From: Verrucomicrobiaceae bacterium
Lineage (GTDB): Bacteria > Verrucomicrobiota > Verrucomicrobiia > Chthoniobacterales > Chthoniobacteraceae
Assembly: GCA_005791535.1 (NCBI GenBank)
Contig: SXWH01000219.1
Span: 1 to 63,094 of the forward strand
Length of the DNA stretch: 63,094 nucleotides
Direction: 5' to 3'
The notes under the pieces are model-generated. The model was not told the origin of the DNA. It saw nothing but the letters and a program-made list of their open reading frames with translations, and did no database searches. Position 1 is the stretch's first letter; each line of letters opens with the position of its first letter. The position numbers were made by a program, and so were the translations under genes. Positions 49,360 through 61,360 of this stretch are shown in pieces.

Positions 49360-50025
49360 TCACGCTGGCCGTGCGCAGCAGCAGCCCTGCTCCCGAATGC
49401 CGCAGCAAAGCGGTACTGCAGCCAGCGCGCCAATCACCGGCGCCGTGAGATACACCCACAAATGCTGGAGGTTTCCTCCCACAACCGCCGGCGCAAGCGA
49501 CCGCGCGGGATTCATGGATGCGCCGCAAATCGGCCCGGCAAACATCGCTTCCAGCGCGATCACGGAACCAATTGCGATGCCCGCAGTAATCCCCTTCTCT
49601 TTCGCGCCGGTGCTGACGCTCAAAATCACGAACATGAGCAGGGCGGTGAGAATCACTTCCAGCACGAAGCTTTGCATAGCCGTTCCCGTGGGGAGCGTGG
49701 CGCCGAGTTTTGCGTCCATCGGAAAGAGCACACGCAACGTACTGCTCGCAGCGAAGGCTCCCGCAATTTGCGCAGCGATGTATGGCGGCACTTCGCTCCA
49801 GTTTGTTCGGCGCGCCGCAGCAAAAGCGATGGTGACGGCGGGATTCAGATGCGCGCCGCTTACGTCACCCAGCGCATAAATCATCGCGAGCACGATCAGG
49901 CCAAACGTTATCGCGATTCCCGCGTGGCCGATGGCTCCGTTGCTCGCGTTGTTGATAACGATCGCGCCGGTACCCGCAAATACGAGCGCGAACGTTCCGA
50001 GGAATTCTCCGAGTAACTTCTTCAT
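49360..50025 (-). CDS. Aquaporin (MIP family channel)
   Basis: A 221-residue membrane channel with six helices and two half-helices. Both NPA boxes are intact: N61-P-A63 (HLNPAVT) and N172-P-A174 (SMNPARS), the latter followed by the pore Arg of the selectivity filter (R175). It probably passes water and perhaps glycerol or another small neutral solute. The C-terminal tail is unusually rich in Cys (CCGIREQGCCCARPA), which could respond to metal or redox. ATG 50025 (MKKLLGEFLG) is chosen; the frame open to 50310 overlaps the UBact gene on the other strand and has no helix. Confidence 0.92.
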   Translation of the reverse strand: MKKLLGEFLGTFALVFAGTGAIVINNASNGAIGHAGIAITFGLIVLAMIYALGDVSGAHLNPAVTIAFAAARRTNWSEVPPYIAAQIAGAFAASSTLRVLFPMDAKLGATLPTGTAMQSFVLEVILTALLMFVILSVSTGAKEKGITAGIAIGSVIALEAMFAGPICGASMNPARSLAPAVVGGNLQHLWVYLTAPVIGALAAVPLCCGIREQGCCCARPA

Positions 50026-50116: not shown

Positions 50117-50293
50117 ATGCCAGATCGGATGCAAAAACCAACCGGACCGGCGCCGTGGGAACCCAAACAGGGCGACGGCGATGGCCCCAAGTCACCGGAC
50201 GTCAAGAAGCCCGAAACAAAAAGCATTCTCGAGCGGATGCGGAAGGTCGACCCCGACCAGGCCCGCCGATACAAGCAGCGCACCGGACAGTAG
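50117..50293 (+). CDS. ubact: UBact, ubiquitin/Pup-like protein modifier
   Basis: A 58-residue, highly charged protein with a disordered Pro/Gly/Asp N-terminus (residues 1-34) and a helix-forming C-terminus ending VDPDQARRYKQRTGQ. The final Gly-Gln matches Pup and UBact, whose C-terminal residue (Gln deamidated to Glu, or Glu directly) is joined to target lysines. The C-terminal half of Pup binds the proteasomal ATPase coiled coil, and the corresponding helix is present here. It lies 4 bp from a proteasome beta gene, which strongly supports the call. The ATG at 50117 gives the known size; the frame open upstream is a shadow of the divergent aquaporin gene. Confidence 0.88.
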   Translation: MPDRMQKPTGPAPWEPKQGDGDGPKSPDVKKPETKSILERMRKVDPDQARRYKQRTGQ

Positions 50294-50297
50294 CGCG

Positions 50298-51107
50298 ATG
50301 CACCAGCCAAGCGCTCCCATTTCGCTCACGGACCCGACGGCGCCGGATTTCGCGACACTGCTCCAGCGCTCCGGCCTTTATCCAAAGGCGCCCGCGGAGT
50401 TTCACGCCACGACATCACTTCAACCGACGCACGCGACAACCATTCTCGCGTTCAAATTTGCAGACGGCGTCCTCGTTGCCGGCGACCGCCGCGCGACTGC
50501 GGGAAATATGATCATGTATGACCGCGCCGACAAGGTTTTGGAGATTGACCGTCATTCCCTGATGGCGATTGCCGGCGTTCCGGCTACCGCATGGGAAATG
50601 GCGCGCGTGCTTGAGCACAGCTTCCATTTTTTCCGGCGCAGCCAGCTCGCGGAAATGAGCATCGAAGGAAAAGTCCGCGCGCTCTCAAAGCTGCTGCGCG
50701 ACAACCTCGGCTTCGTGCTTCAGGGCGTCGGCGTGGTCGTGCCCATCTTCGCCACCTACGATGCCGTTGCAGATTGTCCGCGCGTGTATTTCTACGATGC
50801 AATGGGAGCGGGATTTGAAGCGGCGGAGTTCTCCGCAACGGGAAGCGGAAGCCCGGCCGTGCGCGCCGTGCTCCACTACGAAAATACTTACGGCAAACGA
50901 CCGCTGAAAAAGCTCCGCGCCAGCGATGCCACGCTCCTCGCACTTCGCGCACTCGATACCGCGGCAGAGGCGGACTCGGCGACCGGCGGCGTGGATCGAA
51001 GAGCGAAAGTTTTTCCCATCGTAAAACTGATCACGAAGGACGGCATCGCAACCCTGCCGGAGGCGCGGCTCGCGAAACTCTATCGCGGCAATCTCTCGAC
51101 AAGCTAG
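50298..51107 (+). CDS. prcB: 20S proteasome beta subunit
   Basis: A 269-residue protein with a 46-residue propeptide ending at A46, then mature Thr1 = T47 (HATTILAFKF). The catalytic set is complete in mature numbering: T1, D17 (AGDRR) and K33 (DKVLEI), plus the SGS-type Gly/Ser-rich loop near 177 (ATGSGSPAVRAV). This is an actinobacterial-type PrcB, not HslV: it has the propeptide and longer length. With UBact it predicts tag-directed proteolysis. The ATG is 4 bp after the UBact stop, and tauE follows with no gap. No alpha subunit gene (prcA) lies next to it. Confidence 0.93.
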   Translation: MHQPSAPISLTDPTAPDFATLLQRSGLYPKAPAEFHATTSLQPTHATTILAFKFADGVLVAGDRRATAGNMIMYDRADKVLEIDRHSLMAIAGVPATAWEMARVLEHSFHFFRRSQLAEMSIEGKVRALSKLLRDNLGFVLQGVGVVVPIFATYDAVADCPRVYFYDAMGAGFEAAEFSATGSGSPAVRAVLHYENTYGKRPLKKLRASDATLLALRALDTAAEADSATGGVDRRAKVFPIVKLITKDGIATLPEARLAKLYRGNLSTS

Positions 51108-51875
51108 ATGCCCGAATTGACGACGTTCCAGTGGGTGCTTGCCGTCATCGCAGCGCTCGGCATCGGCGTTTCGAAGAGCGGCTTCGCGGGCGTGAGCCTC
51201 GTCCACGTGCTAGTGATGGCGCATATCTTCGGCGACCGCCTTTCCACCGGCGTCGTGCTGCCGATGCTTGTCGCGGGCGACATTTGCGCGGTGCTCGCTT
51301 TCAAGCGGCACGCCATTTGGAAACATGTCGGCCGCACACTGCCGATCGCCTGCATCGGCGTGGCGCTCGGAACGTGGCTGATGACGATCGTCCCCGATAC
51401 CGCCTACAAGCCGTTCATCGGCTGGACCGTCCTCGTGCTCGTGGTTCTTCAACTCTGGCGGATGTGGAAACCGGCAATGTTCGAGACCGTGCCGCATTCA
51501 TGGCCGTTTGCCGCGGCGATGGGGATGCTTGCGGGAATCACGACGATGATGGCCAACGCCGCCGGGCCCGTCATGGGACTCTACTTCCTCGCAGTGGGGC
51601 TCCCAAAATACCAGCTCACCGGCACGAGCGCGTGGTTTTTTCTGATCATCAATGTCTTCAAAATTCCGTTCAGTGCGGGACTCGGGCTGATCCACGCGCA
51701 GACGCTGATGTTCAATGCCGTGCTCGTTCCGGGAATTGTCGCCGGGCTGTTCCTCGGCCGCTGGCTGCTCGCCCATGTGCCGCAGCGACTGTTCGACGGA
51801 CTCATTCTCGCCTTCGCAGCGATCGCGGCGCTGATGCGCACGGGCTTTTTCGCGTGGGTTCAGTCCCTAATTTAA
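51108..51875 (+). CDS. TauE/SafE family sulfite/anion exporter-like permease
   Basis: A 255-residue membrane protein with about eight helices. The TauE/SafE repeat signature is visible twice: GIGVSKSGFAGVSLVHV near the N-terminus and GMLAGITTMMANAAGPVMGLYFL in the second half. These proteins are linked to sulfite, sulfoacetate or other anion export. The ATG is directly after the prcB stop, so it is transcribed with the proteasome gene; I see no functional link. Its end overlaps the convergent yqgE gene by 9 bp. Confidence 0.87.
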   Translation: MPELTTFQWVLAVIAALGIGVSKSGFAGVSLVHVLVMAHIFGDRLSTGVVLPMLVAGDICAVLAFKRHAIWKHVGRTLPIACIGVALGTWLMTIVPDTAYKPFIGWTVLVLVVLQLWRMWKPAMFETVPHSWPFAAAMGMLAGITTMMANAAGPVMGLYFLAVGLPKYQLTGTSAWFFLIINVFKIPFSAGLGLIHAQTLMFNAVLVPGIVAGLFLGRWLLAHVPQRLFDGLILAFAAIAALMRTGFFAWVQSLI

Positions 51876-52430
51876 ACCGGGTTCGTCCGGCGCTTCGGCG
51901 ACGAGTTTGAACCATGGGCCGAAAGTGCTCGTCATCTCCCGCCAGATGCGCGGTGCACGCTCAACTTCGAGCACTTCCTCCTTATCTGCCTTGCGCACGA
52001 GCCACGCACGCTGCGCGAGTTCACCCTCGATTTGCCCGCCCGTCCATCCGCTGTAGCCAATGAACGCGCGGACCGTGTGATCTTTTGCGACGGTGAGATG
52101 CGCGGCTTCCTCCAGGGAAATGTGATGCCGGCATTCGATGAGGCGTTTCTCCGGATTCCATCGAAATGCTGCGAGAAGCATTTTATCCGGCTCCACCGGC
52201 CCGCCGTTGAGCACCGGCACCCGCGCAAGCTGCCCGAGCGGCTGGTCCTCCAGCAATTCACCGACCAGCTTGCCCATCGGACGATTTAGCACGAGCCCGA
52301 AGCTCCCAGTTTTCGCATCATGATCGGCGAGGAAAATCACCGTTCTCCGAAACGTCGCCTCCGTAAGGCTTGGGTGGGCAATCAGAAAACTGCCCGACAA
52401 AGTCAGCGATGTAGAAACCGATTCTCGCAC
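51867..52430 (-). CDS. YqgE/AlgH family protein
   Basis: A 187-residue cytoplasmic protein of the YqgE/AlgH (DUF179) family. The family order is clear: LSGSFLIAHPSL, FRRTVIFLADHD, GSFGLVLNRPM, VLNGGPVEPDKMLL, and the Gly/Trp segment AFIGYSGWTGGQIEGEL. Its biochemical role is unproven; it has been tied to transcription regulation in pseudomonads. The start is a GTG at 52430; a TTG nearer the LSGSF motif is a possible alternative. It converges on tauE with a 9-bp overlap. Confidence 0.9.
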   Translation of the reverse strand: MRESVSTSLTLSGSFLIAHPSLTEATFRRTVIFLADHDAKTGSFGLVLNRPMGKLVGELLEDQPLGQLARVPVLNGGPVEPDKMLLAAFRWNPEKRLIECRHHISLEEAAHLTVAKDHTVRAFIGYSGWTGGQIEGELAQRAWLVRKADKEEVLEVERAPRIWREMTSTFGPWFKLVAEAPDEPGLN

Positions 52431-52768: not shown

Positions 52769-55700
52769 ATGAAATCACGCTTCGTTCCATCGCATTCGCG
52801 CCCGACCAGCCGCGGCAGCCGCGCCGTCATTCTCGCCACTTCGATCGCATCGCTATTCGCCACAGGCAAGGCTGTCGCAGCCAATGATTCGTGGACCGGC
52901 GCAACCGACGGAGTTTGGGCCACAGCGGGCAATTGGCTCGGCGGAAATGTCCCCGGAGCAGGAGACATCGCCACGTTCAACGGCGCGAGCGCAAACACCA
53001 CGATTGATCTCGGCGCGGGCGTGACCATCCAGTCCCTCGCCTTCGACACCGCGGCCGTGGCTAATTATACAGTTGGCGCAGGCGCTGCAGGAAGCCAGAC
53101 GCTGACGCTCGGAAATGCTGGATCGATTGTAATGCTGCCGACAGCGACGACCAATCAACTCGTCAATGCGTCGCTCGTCCTCGGCACCGACGGCTCGTCA
53201 CAGACCTTTGCGATCACCAACGGCGTCGCGACCAATCAGCTCACCATCGCGGGCGGAATCTCAGGCTCGACCGGTTCGGGGGCAAAAACAATCTCTCTCA
53301 CGGGCAGCGGAGTGACCACGTTCAGCGGTCCAATTTCCAACGGAACCGGAGGCACGGTGGGAATCTCGCTAACCGGTACTGGTCATCTGAATCTCTCGAA
53401 TACCGGCAATACCTTCTCGGGCGGCGTCACCATCGGACCGGCTGCCGGAACCGTCACGGCGACGACGAACAACGGCACGAATGCATCGGGCCTCGGCACG
53501 GGAGCGGTATCCATCGGCGGAGGCTCGACCGTCAATCTGCTCAGCGCAAACACGGTTGCTACAGCGACGACCCTCAACAACACATTCACCGGCAGCGGGC
53601 TTCTCAAACTGACATTCACCGGGACCACGGCAACGAACACGATCTTGAATGGCATATCCGGGTTTACTGGAGCCATCCAACTCGCGAACGCCGGAATCAA
53701 CGCGGACAAGCTGAACACGAATGCGAATATGGGCAACATGGCCGCTTCGCTTACGATTGACAACGACAGCCAGCTCTTCGTCACCGGTAGCAGCACGACG
53801 AATTTCAACGGAGGTATCTCCATAATTGGCACCGGCAACAGCGAAAATCGCGGTGTCATCCGTCTCGGCGTCGGCGTCCTGGGTGGAAACATCTCGCTTG
53901 CGGGAAGCAGCACCATCGGCATGGAAGGTGGTATATTGGCCGGCAACATCTCGGCAACCGGCACGAATACGCTCACGTTTGGCACGGCAAACTCGGCCAC
54001 CCGGGCTTACGCCACGGGCATCATTGGCAACGGTGCAGGAACACTCGCGTTGACGAAGGTCAACGGCGGCACGCTCTGGCTGTCCGGCGCAAATACCTAT
54101 ACAGGTGCGACAACAATTTCGGCCGGCTCGTTGCAACTTGGAATCGGACAGGACGGCGGGACCACGGGGTCGCTCTCGACAAACAGCGCCATCGGCATCG
54201 CTTCGGGAGCAAACCTCATTTTCGGCCGTTCAAATGCAATCGCCTTGGGAACCGATTTCGGCGCGATCTCCGGTGCGGGCAACGTGGCGCAAAACGGCAC
54301 AGGCACCACCACCTTCGCTCCGTCCGCAACGATGGCGTACACCGGCCAGACTCAGGTAAACCGCGGAACCCTCGCACTCGATTTCGCCAACATGGCGACG
54401 CCGACAGACCTGATCAACGCCACGTCCATCCTGAACCTCGGCGGCGGCACTCTCTCGATCCTTGGCAAAAACACAGGCACGACCGCACAGACGTTTGCGA
54501 GCACGACCTTCAGCCCCGGGCGTTCGGTCGTTTCGCCAAACCGGAACGGCGGAACCTCGACGACCGTCTCCCTCGGCGCGCTGACGAATGGACCGGGAAG
54601 TGCGGTTCATTTCATCCCGGCCACCGCCTGGGCCGCAGGTGCAAATGCAACGACTCCAGGGGTCGCTTCGACGACGGAAATCGTGACGGTCGCTTCCGTG
54701 ACCCGCAATGGTACCGCGATTACGATGCCGACAACCGGGTATGTCTTTATCGGCGCAAACATGTTCAATGGCACCGGCAGTGGAGCACGCTATGTTGTGG
54801 CGAAGGGCGCAGCATCGGGGCCATACCAACTCGTGGCCATGCCGACCAGCAATGCGTTTGTGACGACTGGCGGCTCCGCAAGCTTGGTCTACAATATCGC
54901 CGCCGCCCAAACGCTGACGGGGGCGGTGACAAACTACGCGCTTATCGGCAATAGCACAGGCGCAGTGACGCTCACGCTTGGTGCCAATGCATACACTTCA
55001 AACGGTTTCCTTAACGCGCAAACCGGCACCATCACAATATCCGGCGCCGGCGGACTGACCATCGGTGCGGAGAAGGATTTCGTGGTGAACAATGCAAATA
55101 CCGGCGGCCTCACGATCAGCGCCGTGATTGCAAATAACGGCGGCGGCGCTTCGAGCATCACGAACTCCAGCACGGGCACCGGCATTCTCACACTCAGTGG
55201 AGCCAACACCTACACGGGCAGCACCTACTTTAATAGTGGCACCACGTCCATTGCAACGGACGGTGCAGCGAGCGCGGCCTCGCCGCTCGGCACCGTTCCA
55301 GCGGCGGCCACGCCCGGGAATCTGGTATTCAATGGCGGCACGCTGCGGTTCGTGCCGACTGCGGCAGCTACGCTGAATGCAAATCGCGGCATCACCCTCG
55401 GTGCGAGTGGCGGAACTATTACGAACACCGCTGCATTTGCTGTCACGATAAGCCCCATCATCGCGGGCATCGGCGGGCTGACGCTCAGCAACACCAGCAC
55501 GAACACCCTCGTCATCGGCGGTGCGAACACCTTCACAGGCGGCGCAACACTCACTGGAACCGGCTTAATCGTTGCCAACAACAACGCTGCATTTGGTGCC
55601 GGCGGAATCCTCACGCTGAACGGTGCCCCGCTCCGCGCTGCCACCGGTGCAAATATCTCCCTCGCCAACCCGGTGAACATCGCGGCTGATACGACATTCC

Positions 55701-58700
55701 CAACAACAGGAACCGAAAAGAGCCTTATTTTCAATGGCCCGGCGACACTCAGCGGAACACGGACACTCACCTCGGCAGTCGGCACGACCGTCGGCGGAGT
55801 GTCGGTGCAGTTCAACAATGCGATCGGCGAATCCACTCCGCTCAGCGGTCTCGTAAAGGCCGGTGCCGGCGAACTGGTGCTCGGCGGTCTGAATACGTTC
55901 ACCGGTCCGACATCGATCACAGCGGGCCGGGCTACTTACACGAGAACGTCCGCACTTTACTCCAGTACTCCAGCGAGTTGGACGGATACGAATATCACCG
56001 TTGCGAGCGGCGCTACGCTGAATCTGCGGGTCGGTGGAACGAATGGATTCTCCACCGCGGATGTCTCCACGATTTCCGCGCTCGGCACGGCAACGGGCGG
56101 TTTCCAGACGGGTTCGGTCCTCGGACTCGACACGACCAACGGAGACTTCACGCACACCGGCGTCCTTGCAAATCCGAATGGCGGCGCCAACAGCGTCGGC
56201 CTGCTCAAGCACGGCGCGAACAACCTCACGCTGACCGGCACGAATACATACACCGGCACGACCTATCTCGCCGGCGGTGTCACCGTCGCGGCAAATACCT
56301 CGGCATTCGGACCCGCGGGGAATTCCATTGTCTTGAACGGGACGGTCAATCTGAGCGGCACCACCGCGCTCCAGACTTTCGGCAACGTGGAATTCGCGAC
56401 CGACTCCAGCGTAAATGCCTACAACTTCACCGGCAGCAGCAATTCGCCATCGTCCATCACCGTGAGTCGCGCAACTTCCGGTGCTGCGGTAACCCATCTG
56501 CTCGGGCAGATCAATTGGGGAAATAACATCCTCACCGTGCAAGCGGGAACGAACAACGCGAGCGGCACGCCGGGTGTTTCATTTTCCGGATTCAACGCGA
56601 CGGCTGGCGGCTCAGGAAACAGCACTCTCAACCCGACGACCGCGACCATCGCAATCACTGGACCAACGAATATCGGCGGCAACAGCTTTGCGAAGACACT
56701 CGTGCTCGATGGCACGATTGCGGGCAACACGATTTCGGGCGTCATTAGCAACGGGATCAACACGCTGTCCGTCAACAAGTCCAATACCAGCGTCTGGGAC
56801 CTCTCCGGTGCGAACACGTATTCGGGAACAACCACGGTCACCGCGGGCACGCTCATCCTCTCCGGCACGAACACCGGCACCGGCGCGACGAGCATCGTCG
56901 GCGGCACTATGCGGGCCGGAGCAAGCGGGGCGCTGAATCCGAATTCCGCCGTCACCATGACCGACGCGGCAACCGCGATCCTCGACCTGAACGGCTTTGA
57001 CGGCACCATCGCCTCGCTCTCGGGCGGCGGCACCCTCGGTGGCAACGTCACACTCGGCAATGGAACGCTCACGACAGGCGATGCGACATCGACCAGCTAC
57101 TCCGGAAACATCACCGGCATCGGCAACGTCATTAAGGCCGGCGTTGGCACTTTCACGCTCGCGTCCGCGCAGAGCTACACGGGCTCGACATCGGTCAACG
57201 CCGGCACGTTGCTCGCGAATAGCACCCTCGCATCCACGACGGTGAACGTCGCAGGCGGAACACTTGGCGGTACGGGCGCGCTCGCAGGAACCGTGACGGT
57301 TAACGCCGGCGGCATGCTGTCGCCTGCAACCTCTACAACTGCGGGAACAATCACGCTCGCCGGCCTCACGCTGAACGCGGGCTCGGGCATCGCCTACGAG
57401 TTCGGCGCCACCAGCGATCTGGTCGCCGTCACCGCGCCAAACGCACTTACGATCAACGGCGGCGCACTGAGTCTGTTCGCCGCGGGCGGTCTTACTCCGC
57501 TCACGACAAACGGCACCTACACGCTCTTCAGCTACACCACCGGATTCGGCGGCGCTCTCGCCAATCTGTCGGTTGCAAATTCCCAAGCCGGCAAGACCTA
57601 CTCCGTCGCAGACGCAGGCGGAACAATCACGCTCACCATCGGAACCGCGACTGCATCGGAGTGGAACGGCGGAGCAGCCGACGGACTCTGGACGACAGCC
57701 GGGAACTGGACGGGCGGAACGCCGAACAGCGTCGGCGCAGTCGCGACATTTGGCACCACGCCGGCCACACCGACGACTGTAGCGGTGAATGGCCCGAAAA
57801 CAGTGGGCTCGATCATCTTCGACAACGCCAATTCCTACACCGTTACCGGCGGCGCGACTGACACAATCACATTTGATAACGGCATCGCAGCGGGTGCCAT
57901 CTCCACAACCACCGGCAACCACACAATCAACGCTCCGATCGTCCTGAACGGCCCGGCAAACATCACCCCGGGAACCGGCACCACGCTGACGCTCGGCGGA
58001 GTCATCACCGGAGCAAAGACCGTCACCTACAGCGGCGCGGGAACCGCCGTGGTCTCCGGCACAAACACCTACTCCGGCGGCACGACGCTTGTTTCGGGCA
58101 CGCTGAGTCTCGCAAACGGCGCGGCGCTCGGCACGGGCACCTTCACCATCAACGGCGGCACCATCGACGCCGCCAGCGTGGTCACGGTCACAACCAACAA
58201 CGCCCAGGTCTGGAACGGCGACTTCACGTTCGCCGGAACAAACAGTCTCGACCTCGGCAACGGCACTGTGTCCGTTCCGATTCCAAGAACCATCACCACG
58301 ACGGCGGGCACCCTCACCGTGGGCGGCTCGATTTCCGGCAGCAGCCTCACGAAAGCCGGCAGCGGCACGCTCGTGCTGGCCGGAAATAATACATACACGG
58401 GAACCACGACCCTCGGCAGCGGAAACGCGACCGCTGGCGGCGGCGGCACACTGGTTCTCGCAGGAACCAATGCCGGCACCGGAAACGTCAATGTCGGCAA
58501 CGGAGCGACACTCGAATTGCGCGCATCCAACGCCCTCGGAACGCTTGGCACCTCAGCGTCGCGCGTTGCCCTCTTCGCAGGCTCAACCCTGCGCCTCCGA
58601 GCCGACAGTTCGGTCACCTTTAGCGGCACAAACGCCATCGCCGGCTTGAACACCGCAACTGTAAGCATTGACGTGGATCAGCTCACGAGCGCAGGCTCCA

Positions 58701-61360
58701 ACCAGACGCTCACGATTTCGCCTGGCGTCACGCCCGTCGGGAACGCCGTGACATTCAATATCACCGGCGGCAACGGCTATTCGCTTGGATTTGGCACAAT
58801 TCAGAACATCACGGGAACCGCGACCAACGTCACGCTCAACCCGACGACGGCAAATGTCTCGCTCGCGGGCTACAACGCACTCAACAACGGCGCGAACAGC
58901 AGCACGCTCACTCTCGGCGGAACGACGACTGGAAACGTGGTGACCGGCGTCATCGCCAACCAGGCGGCGGGCTCCACGGGCACGGGAACGACAGCGGTCG
59001 TAAAAACCGGCCCCGGCACTTGGAATTTGCAGGGAGCAAACACCTTCACCGGCCCAATCACTGTCGTCGAGGGCCTGCTGCGCCTCACCGGCGCGAAGAC
59101 CGGGGCCTCCGGCATCATTACCGTCGGCAACACCGCCGGACTGAACGCCACGCTCGACATCACGGCGGGCACTTACACCATCGGCGGTGCGGGCTCTCGA
59201 ATCAACGTTGGCAATCAGGCGACCACACCGGCCACGGCCACCGTCAATCAAAGCGGCGGTTCCGTTGTGTTCACCGCGGGCGGCGATCAAGTTCTGGTCG
59301 GACAAAACACCGTCGGCAACACCGGCATTTACAACCTCAGCGGCGGCAGCATCACCACCACGACCAGCGCCGCGAGAGGAATCATCCTCGGCGTGAATCC
59401 GAATCCCGCGCCCGGGACAACCAGCGGCGGCGGCATCTTCAACCTGAGCGGAACCGGCGTCATCAACATGACCGCAGCCTCCGGCGGTGGCGGGGATGCG
59501 ATCCTCCAGATTGGTCGCTCGGACGCCTTGGCGGGCAACACTACCAACGAGTTCAATCAGACCGGCGGCACTGCAAACGTGGGCATCCTTGCAATAGGCG
59601 GAGCCGCCAGCGCTGGTTCCACCGGCGTAAACTCCACGCTCAATCTCACAGGTGGAACATTTGCTGCAAACTCCTTCACGTTGCTTGCTGCGGGTGGCAC
59701 CAACACCGCCATCATCAATATCGGCGGCACCGCGAATGTAACACTGCCCGCATTTCCAACTGCACGCGGCGCCGGCTCCACTGCGACCGTGACCTTCAAT
59801 GGCGGCACGCTGAAAAACGCCGCCGCCAGCGCGACCTACATGGGCGGTCTCACCAACGCGTTCATCAAGGCCGGCGGTGCGACGTTCGACACCACCGCAG
59901 GGAACATCACCATCACCCAGTCGCTCCTCACGGATACCGTCTCCACAGGCGGCGGACTCACGAAGCTCGGCACAAACACACTCACGCTCACCGGCGCCAA
60001 CACCTACACGGGCAAAACGGTGGTCTCCGCAGGCGGGCTGACGATCAACTCGATCGGCTCCGTTGGTGGCGGTGCCAGCGCGATCGGAGCACCGACGACC
60101 GTTGCAGAAGGAACCATCGACCTCGCCGGAACGCTCACCTACACGGGCCCCGCGGCGACGACGGACCGCGTGTTTAACCTCTCCAATGCGGCTGTGAACG
60201 TATCAATCTTCAACAGCGGCACGGGGCTTCTCACGCTGAACGGCAACTTCACCGGTTCCGCTTCGAACCTGCTGTTCCGCGGTGCCCAGAACATCACGGT
60301 GAACGGTCTGATTCCAGCGACGCACACCGGACCCGTCACCCACACCGAGACGAGCACTCTGACGCTCACAAATGCTGCGAACGCCTTCACCGGCGCGCTC
60401 GTCGTCTCGAAGGGAACTGTCAGCGTGGATACCATCGACAACAAGGGAGTCGCTTCCGCCATCGGTGCCGGAACGCTCATCACGCTCGGCCAGTCCGGAT
60501 TCAACAACACAGGCACGTTCCAATACACCGGTCTCTTCGGCGGCGCGAGCGACCGCGATATCGACATTCAGAGCAATGCGGCAAACGGCAACGGCGGTAT
60601 CATTGAAAACACCGTCGCCGGACAACTGCTCTCGCTGAGCGGCGACATCACCGTCGGCGGCACCGGCACACTCCCGACGCTCGGCCTCACCGGCGCGGGC
60701 AACGGTCTGCTCAGTGGCGACATCCTCGGCAGCTCCCCGCTCGCCGTCACCAAGACCGGCACGGGAACGTGGACGCTCTCCGGCGCGACCACCTACACCG
60801 GCGCCACCACCGGCAATGCAGGCACGCTCATGGTCAGCGGCAGCATCAGCGGCAGCGCGGTCACCGTGAACACCTCCGCCACCCTCGGCGGAGTCGGCGG
60901 CACCATCGGTGCACTGAACGTCACCTCGGGAGGCATCGTAGCTCCCGGCGCAGGCATCGGCACGCTGAACAGCAGCGACGCCATCTTCGCCTCAAACTCC
61001 ACGTTCGCGCTCGAAATCAACACCACCACGAACACGACCGACCGCCTCGCCGTCACCGGCAGCATCAGCCTATCGCTCGCGCAGGATACCATCCTGAGCG
61101 TCACCGACCTCGCCGCATCAACATACAACGGCACACCGCTGCAATTCGTCACCTACACCGGTGCGTGGAATGGCGGCCTCTTCAGCGTCGGCGGCATCCC
61201 GGTGCCGGACGAAGGCACATTCACCGTGGGCGCGAACACCTTCACGCTCGACTACGACTACGGCGGCAACAGCATCGCCCTCATCCCCGAGCCCGGCAGC
61301 GCCGCGTTGCTCCTCGGCGGTCTTGCGATGCTCGGCTTCCGCCGCCGCCGCCAATCGTAG
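52769..61360 (+). CDS. Giant autotransporter-repeat protein with PEP-CTERM sorting tail
   Basis: A 2863-residue exported beta-helix protein. After a long signal region (about 1-38) the mature chain is built of about 14 autotransporter-associated beta-strand repeats of the type LTLSGANTYTGTT-x-AGTL, from ~434 to ~2690. The chain is extremely rich in Gly, Thr, Asn, Ala and Ser. It ends in a PEP-CTERM sorting signal near 2840: PEPGSAALLLGG, a hydrophobic helix, then RRRR. It needs an exosortase for anchoring; none is in the window. There is no C-terminal beta barrel, so it is not a true autotransporter. The tandem build is described in the findings. Confidence 0.9.
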   Translation: MKSRFVPSHSRPTSRGSRAVILATSIASLFATGKAVAANDSWTGATDGVWATAGNWLGGNVPGAGDIATFNGASANTTIDLGAGVTIQSLAFDTAAVANYTVGAGAAGSQTLTLGNAGSIVMLPTATTNQLVNASLVLGTDGSSQTFAITNGVATNQLTIAGGISGSTGSGAKTISLTGSGVTTFSGPISNGTGGTVGISLTGTGHLNLSNTGNTFSGGVTIGPAAGTVTATTNNGTNASGLGTGAVSIGGGSTVNLLSANTVATATTLNNTFTGSGLLKLTFTGTTATNTILNGISGFTGAIQLANAGINADKLNTNANMGNMAASLTIDNDSQLFVTGSSTTNFNGGISIIGTGNSENRGVIRLGVGVLGGNISLAGSSTIGMEGGILAGNISATGTNTLTFGTANSATRAYATGIIGNGAGTLALTKVNGGTLWLSGANTYTGATTISAGSLQLGIGQDGGTTGSLSTNSAIGIASGANLIFGRSNAIALGTDFGAISGAGNVAQNGTGTTTFAPSATMAYTGQTQVNRGTLALDFANMATPTDLINATSILNLGGGTLSILGKNTGTTAQTFASTTFSPGRSVVSPNRNGGTSTTVSLGALTNGPGSAVHFIPATAWAAGANATTPGVASTTEIVTVASVTRNGTAITMPTTGYVFIGANMFNGTGSGARYVVAKGAASGPYQLVAMPTSNAFVTTGGSASLVYNIAAAQTLTGAVTNYALIGNSTGAVTLTLGANAYTSNGFLNAQTGTITISGAGGLTIGAEKDFVVNNANTGGLTISAVIANNGGGASSITNSSTGTGILTLSGANTYTGSTYFNSGTTSIATDGAASAASPLGTVPAAATPGNLVFNGGTLRFVPTAAATLNANRGITLGASGGTITNTAAFAVTISPIIAGIGGLTLSNTSTNTLVIGGANTFTGGATLTGTGLIVANNNAAFGAGGILTLNGAPLRAATGANISLANPVNIAADTTFPTTGTEKSLIFNGPATLSGTRTLTSAVGTTVGGVSVQFNNAIGESTPLSGLVKAGAGELVLGGLNTFTGPTSITAGRATYTRTSALYSSTPASWTDTNITVASGATLNLRVGGTNGFSTADVSTISALGTATGGFQTGSVLGLDTTNGDFTHTGVLANPNGGANSVGLLKHGANNLTLTGTNTYTGTTYLAGGVTVAANTSAFGPAGNSIVLNGTVNLSGTTALQTFGNVEFATDSSVNAYNFTGSSNSPSSITVSRATSGAAVTHLLGQINWGNNILTVQAGTNNASGTPGVSFSGFNATAGGSGNSTLNPTTATIAITGPTNIGGNSFAKTLVLDGTIAGNTISGVISNGINTLSVNKSNTSVWDLSGANTYSGTTTVTAGTLILSGTNTGTGATSIVGGTMRAGASGALNPNSAVTMTDAATAILDLNGFDGTIASLSGGGTLGGNVTLGNGTLTTGDATSTSYSGNITGIGNVIKAGVGTFTLASAQSYTGSTSVNAGTLLANSTLASTTVNVAGGTLGGTGALAGTVTVNAGGMLSPATSTTAGTITLAGLTLNAGSGIAYEFGATSDLVAVTAPNALTINGGALSLFAAGGLTPLTTNGTYTLFSYTTGFGGALANLSVANSQAGKTYSVADAGGTITLTIGTATASEWNGGAADGLWTTAGNWTGGTPNSVGAVATFGTTPATPTTVAVNGPKTVGSIIFDNANSYTVTGGATDTITFDNGIAAGAISTTTGNHTINAPIVLNGPANITPGTGTTLTLGGVITGAKTVTYSGAGTAVVSGTNTYSGGTTLVSGTLSLANGAALGTGTFTINGGTIDAASVVTVTTNNAQVWNGDFTFAGTNSLDLGNGTVSVPIPRTITTTAGTLTVGGSISGSSLTKAGSGTLVLAGNNTYTGTTTLGSGNATAGGGGTLVLAGTNAGTGNVNVGNGATLELRASNALGTLGTSASRVALFAGSTLRLRADSSVTFSGTNAIAGLNTATVSIDVDQLTSAGSNQTLTISPGVTPVGNAVTFNITGGNGYSLGFGTIQNITGTATNVTLNPTTANVSLAGYNALNNGANSSTLTLGGTTTGNVVTGVIANQAAGSTGTGTTAVVKTGPGTWNLQGANTFTGPITVVEGLLRLTGAKTGASGIITVGNTAGLNATLDITAGTYTIGGAGSRINVGNQATTPATATVNQSGGSVVFTAGGDQVLVGQNTVGNTGIYNLSGGSITTTTSAARGIILGVNPNPAPGTTSGGGIFNLSGTGVINMTAASGGGGDAILQIGRSDALAGNTTNEFNQTGGTANVGILAIGGAASAGSTGVNSTLNLTGGTFAANSFTLLAAGGTNTAIINIGGTANVTLPAFPTARGAGSTATVTFNGGTLKNAAASATYMGGLTNAFIKAGGATFDTTAGNITITQSLLTDTVSTGGGLTKLGTNTLTLTGANTYTGKTVVSAGGLTINSIGSVGGGASAIGAPTTVAEGTIDLAGTLTYTGPAATTDRVFNLSNAAVNVSIFNSGTGLLTLNGNFTGSASNLLFRGAQNITVNGLIPATHTGPVTHTETSTLTLTNAANAFTGALVVSKGTVSVDTIDNKGVASAIGAGTLITLGQSGFNNTGTFQYTGLFGGASDRDIDIQSNAANGNGGIIENTVAGQLLSLSGDITVGGTGTLPTLGLTGAGNGLLSGDILGSSPLAVTKTGTGTWTLSGATTYTGATTGNAGTLMVSGSISGSAVTVNTSATLGGVGGTIGALNVTSGGIVAPGAGIGTLNSSDAIFASNSTFALEINTTTNTTDRLAVTGSISLSLAQDTILSVTDLAASTYNGTPLQFVTYTGAWNGGLFSVGGIPVPDEGTFTVGANTFTLDYDYGGNSIALIPEPGSAALLLGGLAMLGFRRRRQS

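What the first reader, a model, noticed from the sequence alone, without database searches (positions are those of the whole stretch)
50117..51107. UBact-proteasome pair in a reduced locus with no alpha subunit, ligase or ATPase next to it
Seen: a 58-residue Pup-like protein ending in RTGQ is 4 bp from a proteasome beta gene with intact T47/D63/K79. Known: Pup/UBact systems need PafA-type ligase, Dop-type deamidase (required when the last residue is Gln), a ring ATPase and the alpha ring; as I recall, published loci often cluster these. Here prcB is followed by an exporter and flanked by an aquaporin. Inference: the system is split across the genome, or the beta ring works with other partners.
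Basis: partly seen in the sequence, partly recalled or inferred. Interest (0 to 1): 0.85.

Follow-up and report, generated by a model that had tools for sequence, protein, structure and literature searches.

The report
Bacterial tag-and-proteasome genes, scattered
This bacterium carries a small protein tag and the cutting half of a proteasome side by side; the tagging enzymes and the motor sit elsewhere in its genome, and the one part not found, the outer ring, has also moved away in its closest relatives, so it is probably hidden in the part of the genome that was not assembled.

Summary
Window 50117-50293 encodes a 58-residue UBact ending RTGQ; 4 bp on, 50298-51107 encodes a proteasome beta subunit with Thr47/Asp63/Lys79. 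No alpha, ligase, Dop or ATPase gene lies beside them. The draft genome (86.6% complete) does hold an Mpa/ARC ATPase directly upstream of dop (contig C221) and a pafA gene (C289). That scattering is normal in the family: pafA is near UBact in 2 of 21 genomes that have these genes. The unusual part is alpha. Of 101 sampled genomes of the order with beta, 99 have alpha, 93 within 1 kb. It is truly unlinked in three, all in this genus; two are the window's sister genomes, which share its aquaporin-UBact-prcB-TauE-YqgE order. In this genome alpha is absent from the assembly, and both flanks of the sisters' relocated alpha are present without it. UBact and PrcB are under purifying selection. Best reading: an ordinary UBact-proteasome system whose alpha gene moved away in this clade and lies in the unassembled part. 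True loss of alpha, with a beta ring working without it, is not excluded (about 8%).

The parts
50117..50293 (+). UBact, 58 aa, C-terminus RTGQ
   Evidence: adjacent to beta in 98 of 98 genomes
50298..51107 (+). prcB, proteasome beta subunit, 269 aa, 46-residue propeptide, Thr47 as mature residue 1
51108..51875 (+). TauE/SafE-type exporter gene; occupies the place just after prcB where prcA stands in most relatives; neighbour, not shown to be part of the system
   Evidence: PF01925; same place in G015 and G148
49360..50025 (-). MIP aquaporin gene, divergent from UBact; neighbour, shared with G015 and G148
51867..52430 (-). YqgE/AlgH-like gene (DUF179); neighbour, shared with G015 and G148

Best explanation
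This is the tag-and-protease pair of an ordinary UBact-proteasome system in what is most likely a Chthoniobacterales bacterium. Mechanism, inferred from the actinobacterial Pup system: Dop deamidates the C-terminal Gln of UBact, PafA joins it to substrate lysines, the Mpa/ARC ATPase unfolds tagged proteins and feeds them into a chamber of alpha and beta rings whose active subunit is PrcB. In this genome the genes lie in at least three places: UBact-prcB, arc-dop, and pafA. prcA, which follows prcB in nearly all relatives, was separated from it before this genome and its two sister genomes diverged, and TauE now abuts the prcB stop. Most likely prcA still exists at an unlinked site in the unassembled part of the genome. 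Shown: UBact, prcB, pafA, dop and arc present as open genes; prcA absent from the assembly; prcA unlinked in the sisters. Inferred: the mechanism, and where prcA is.
For: ATPase, Dop and PafA genes found in the same draft. Both sister genomes have the same UBact-prcB surroundings and an intact alpha on another contig; G066 of the same genus is also unlinked. G000 is sister to G015+G148, bootstrap 100. Of the 100 other sampled genomes with beta, 99 have alpha and in the last, G141, the contig ends at prcB. The draft is 86.59% complete. dN/dS between G000 and its sisters: UBact 0.024-0.026, PrcB 0.075-0.079. PrcB departs from near-invariant positions 1 time in 131, range 0-6 in 80 others.
Against: No trace of prcA in the draft with TIGR03691 up to E = 10, with the sister protein (best E 0.067) or with profile A1. 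Both flanks of the sisters' relocated prcA are assembled in G000 without it. Several models score below their curated cut-offs (PrcB, PafA, Dop, ATPase). No function was tested.
Confidence: 0.84

Rival explanations
1. prcA has really been lost in this lineage. PrcB then forms a chamber without an alpha ring or with other partners, or UBact acts without the proteasome.
For: Alpha absent by three searches; absent at the beta site and at both flanks of the sisters' alpha site. Another genus member, G005, has lost the system and keeps only a UBact-prcB deletion scar, so loss does happen in the genus.
Against: Alpha kept in 99 of the 100 other genomes with beta, the last being cut by a contig end. 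UBact and PrcB under purifying selection, PrcB not degenerate. About 13% of the genome is missing.
Confidence: 0.08
2. An alpha gene is in the assembly but too divergent for the profiles used.
For: PF00227 alone misses some alphas: G023 and G139 show one match but have alpha.
Against: Profile A1 found alpha in 102 of 197 genomes across several families; the sisters' alphas are 96% alike, while PrcB of G000 is 86% identical to theirs, so an alpha of similar divergence would be found.
Confidence: 0.04
3. Assembly or binning artefact: UBact-prcB belongs to another organism, or the junction is chimeric.
For: The genome is a fragmented draft of 294 contigs, 1.93% contamination.
Against: The same five-gene order is in two other genomes; PrcB, PafA and Dop trees each put G000 with the same two sisters.
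Confidence: 0.02

Closest known systems
UBact-proteasome system of Gram-negative bacteria (Pfam PF20513, NCBIfam NF033388; the 2017 paper of Lehmann and colleagues is recalled, not seen)
   Same: UBact, beta, PafA, Dop and Mpa/ARC-like ATPase present
   Different: prcA not found in this draft; genes on at least three contigs; TauE follows prcB
Pup-proteasome system of Actinobacteria
   Same: Homologous enzymes and, by inference, the same chemistry; terminal Gln as in some Pups (PMC8223512, passages seen)
   Different: There one locus holds the genes (PMC8223512). The ATPase here ends PTVI rather than the GQYL quoted; relatives that have alpha end in similar VI or VV tails
UBact-prcB-prcA arrangement of other Chthoniobacterales
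   Same: UBact directly before prcB (98 of 98)
   Different: There prcA follows prcB within 1 kb in 93 of 99 genomes with both
HslV and Anbu, beta-type proteases without alpha subunits
   Same: Related beta fold
   Different: PrcB scores 174 bits for 20S_bact_beta, 28 and 22 bits for HslV models; no Anbu model was among the hits shown

Membership tests
UBact-proteasome system | UBact tag with conjugatable C-terminal Gln or Glu | tested here: met
   RTGQ end; NF033388 over cut-off; 67 RTGQ and 13 RTGE among 80 loci with UBact
UBact-proteasome system | Catalytic beta subunit | tested here: met
   TIGR03690 below its cut-off
UBact-proteasome system | Alpha subunit | tested here: inconclusive
   Not found in an 86.6% complete draft; present in both sister genomes
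UBact-proteasome system | PafA-type ligase | tested here: met
   C289 gene: PafA 336 bits, Dop 311 bits; in solved structures Dop chains score higher (243) than PafA (217) but only PafA matches the full length, so the label has a small margin
UBact-proteasome system | Dop-type deamidase | tested here: met
   C221 gene: Dop 469 bits, PafA 357, below the cut-off of 492; Dop structures best
UBact-proteasome system | Mpa/ARC ring ATPase | tested here: met
   C221: pup_AAA 443 bits, below the cut-off of 504.75; proteasome-associated ATPase structures best
UBact-proteasome system | Tagging and degradation activity | not testable with these tools
HslV/Anbu-like alpha-less protease | Sequence closest to HslV | tested here: not met

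The most novel reading that the evidence does not exclude
A bacterium that keeps UBact, PafA, Dop, the ATPase and a selected, catalytically intact PrcB but has lost PrcA, so that PrcB works in a chamber without an alpha ring or with a replaced one. The genus would then be a natural series: operon intact, alpha unlinked, alpha lost, system lost.
Probability: 0.08. Interest if true: 0.75.

Novelty: new member of a known kind. Interest (0 to 1): 0.33.

Why it matters
In this clade the alpha and beta genes of a bacterial proteasome have come apart while the tag gene stays next to beta: UBact-beta adjacency held in 98 of 98 sampled genomes, and alpha-beta linkage broke only in this genus. An early survey (PMC2588565, passages seen) stated that Pup is always next to a PafA gene; in this family that holds for 2 of 21 genomes. 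If prcA proved truly absent, the question whether a beta ring can work without alpha would become testable.

Tried and rejected
Considered and set aside. (a) Alpha too divergent for Pfam: PF00227 does miss some alphas, so I built a 12-sequence alpha profile (A1; it matches solved PrcA chains). It found alpha in 102 of 197 genomes but not in G000. (b) Alpha at the site used by the sisters: the flank on contig C55 is followed by a convergent gene and the flank on C131 by a long unrelated gene, no alpha. (c) Loss of an alpha-docking tail of the ATPase as a sign of alpha loss: six relatives examined that have alpha end in similar VI or VV tails, so uninformative. (d) One split event or two: grouping G066 with the window's clade is not rejected (AU p = 0.31), so this stays open. 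(f) Where the alpha site of G066 lies in G000: not tested, same reason. (g) Literature: searches listed no paper whose title or abstract start reports unlinked bacterial prcA and prcB; only passages of PMC2588565, PMC8223512, PMC7947786, PMC6466877 and PMC5666114 were seen (PMC7203096 was opened but none of the terms were found), and most subscription papers are not held. No structure was predicted and no fold search run.

Full report
What is there. The window is one complete contig (C201, 63,094 bases) of a draft genome, G000, of 5,162,034 bases in 294 contigs, 86.59% complete and 1.93% contaminated. UBact is at 50117-50293 and prcB at 50298-51107, 4 bp apart. UBact matches PF20513 (2.8e-22) and NF033388 (2.2e-23, over its cut-off). 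PrcB matches PF00227 and TIGR03690 (3.8e-51, 174 bits, below the cut-off of 191.9) and, among solved structures, mycobacterial PrcB best (2.5e-29); mature chains begin where the query has Thr47. The next gene, a TauE/SafE exporter, starts on the base after the prcB stop.

Which organism. The nearest named relatives of PrcB are records labelled Chthoniobacteraceae, Spartobacteria and Chthoniobacter, and two labelled Prosthecobacter debontii. That the order is Chthoniobacterales is therefore inference.

The other components. G000 has two Pup_ligase genes, C221:5018-6388 and C289:16802-18103. By NCBIfam the first is Dop (469 bits against 357 for PafA) and the second PafA (336 against 311), all below the curated cut-offs. 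Solved structures agree for Dop. For PafA the top solved chains are Dop at 243 bits, with PafA at 217, but only the PafA match spans the full length, so that label rests on a small margin. An Mpa/ARC-like ATPase gene lies directly upstream of dop, 15 bases between them (proteasome-associated ATPase structures best; 443 bits against a cut-off of 504.75).

How usual is the scattering? In the family 40 genomes were searched and 21 have Pup_ligase genes. Of the 21, pafA lies within 2 kb of UBact in 2 (G139, G158), UBact and both enzymes are on different contigs in 18, and in G164 UBact is not in the assembly (positions). The same two appear as L093 and L092. The ATPase gene was found directly upstream of dop in 7 of the 21 (G000, G041, G083, G092, G136, G144, G150); in G032 and G166 the contig ends within 300 bases; in the other 12 it was not in the 1.5 kb upstream (2.5 kb or more in eight of them). 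Whether those 12 have it elsewhere was not tested. Iyer and colleagues 2008 (PMC2588565, passages seen) wrote that Pup is invariably next to a PafA gene.

Alpha. In a sample of 197 genomes of the order, PF00227 matched 103. I dropped G018 and G185, whose only match is weak (1.8e-4, 6.1e-5), leaving 101 with beta. Profile A1 found alpha in 102 and NF033388 found UBact in 98. Of 99 genomes with both beta and alpha, 93 have them on one strand within 1 kb. Of the other six, G162 and G166 have 1.5 and 2.2 kb between them, G095 is only cut by contig ends inside prcB, and G015, G148 and G066 have alpha on another contig while prcB is followed by other genes in its own contig. Beta without alpha: G141, where the contig ends at prcB, and G000. 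Alpha without beta: G164, G188, G115; in G164 alpha lies 119 bases from a contig end. UBact and beta are adjacent in 98 of 98. The sets overlap, so these are not independent samples.

The genus. Ten genomes are held. UBact-prcB-prcA together: G088, G124, G154. Unlinked: G015, G148, G066. G164: alpha at a contig end, beta not found. G000: alpha not found. G152 (76% complete): none. G005 (96% complete): no alpha, PafA or Dop, and only a scar in which the start of UBact runs into the end of prcB, with a stop inside.

Where is alpha in G000? G000 is sister to G015+G148 (bootstrap 100) and shares their aquaporin-UBact-prcB-TauE-YqgE order, so the separation probably predates their divergence. In G015 and G148 alpha lies between a ketosynthase-like gene and a hydrolase-like gene (these names are my reading, not tested against a library). 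In G000 both flanks are assembled, on C55 and C131, with other genes next to them. Searches of the draft with TIGR03691 (E up to 10), the G015 protein (best E 0.067) and A1 found nothing. A search of the same kind with PrcB picked up a 22-residue fragment in G154, so a fragment at a contig end would probably have shown.

Weighing. About 13% of the genome is missing. Loss of alpha with an uncut beta was seen in none of the other sampled genomes. A rough balance (13% against about 1%) favours a gap by about ten to one; this is my estimate, not a computed result. Selection agrees: dN/dS between G000 and its sisters is 0.024-0.026 for UBact, 0.075-0.079 for PrcB, 0.043-0.046 for Dop and 0.037-0.039 for PafA, with 0.06-0.10 for the three neighbours TauE, aquaporin and YqgE (synonymous sites are near saturation, so the values are rough). 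PrcB of G000 departs from positions conserved in 95% once in 131, range 0-6 in the other 80. Selection on PrcB would also be expected if it worked without alpha, so it argues for function, not for alpha.

Conclusion. The unusual part is the separation of prcA from prcB, confined in this sample to the window's genus, in one or two events (a single-origin grouping is not rejected, AU p = 0.31). The mechanism is taken from the Pup system (PMC8223512, passages seen) and was not tested.

Noticed in passing
L198 4187-4357 (G005:C62): A deletion scar: the first 20 or so residues of UBact run in frame into the last part of PrcB, with a stop inside, in a genome without alpha, PafA or Dop matches.
   Followed up: partly
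L037 (G023:C66): G023 (96% complete) has UBact with a glycine-rich insertion, PrcB and PrcA together but no Pup_ligase (PafA/Dop) match in its genome.
   Followed up: no
G022, G047, G065, G077: These genomes of one genus have two strong beta-type matches on different contigs and one alpha, which suggests a second beta gene.
   Followed up: no
G004:C227:16626-16781: A second UBact match away from the prcB locus in one genome.
   Followed up: no
L007 3236-6502 (G000:C221): The ATPase gene is directly upstream of dop in G000 but not in the 2.5 kb or more upstream of dop in the seven other genus members that have dop; where it lies in them is unknown.
   Followed up: partly
window 52769-61360 +: A 2,863-residue ORF with ten passenger-associated-transport-repeat matches and a C-terminal PEP-CTERM motif.
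   Followed up: no
   Followed up: no
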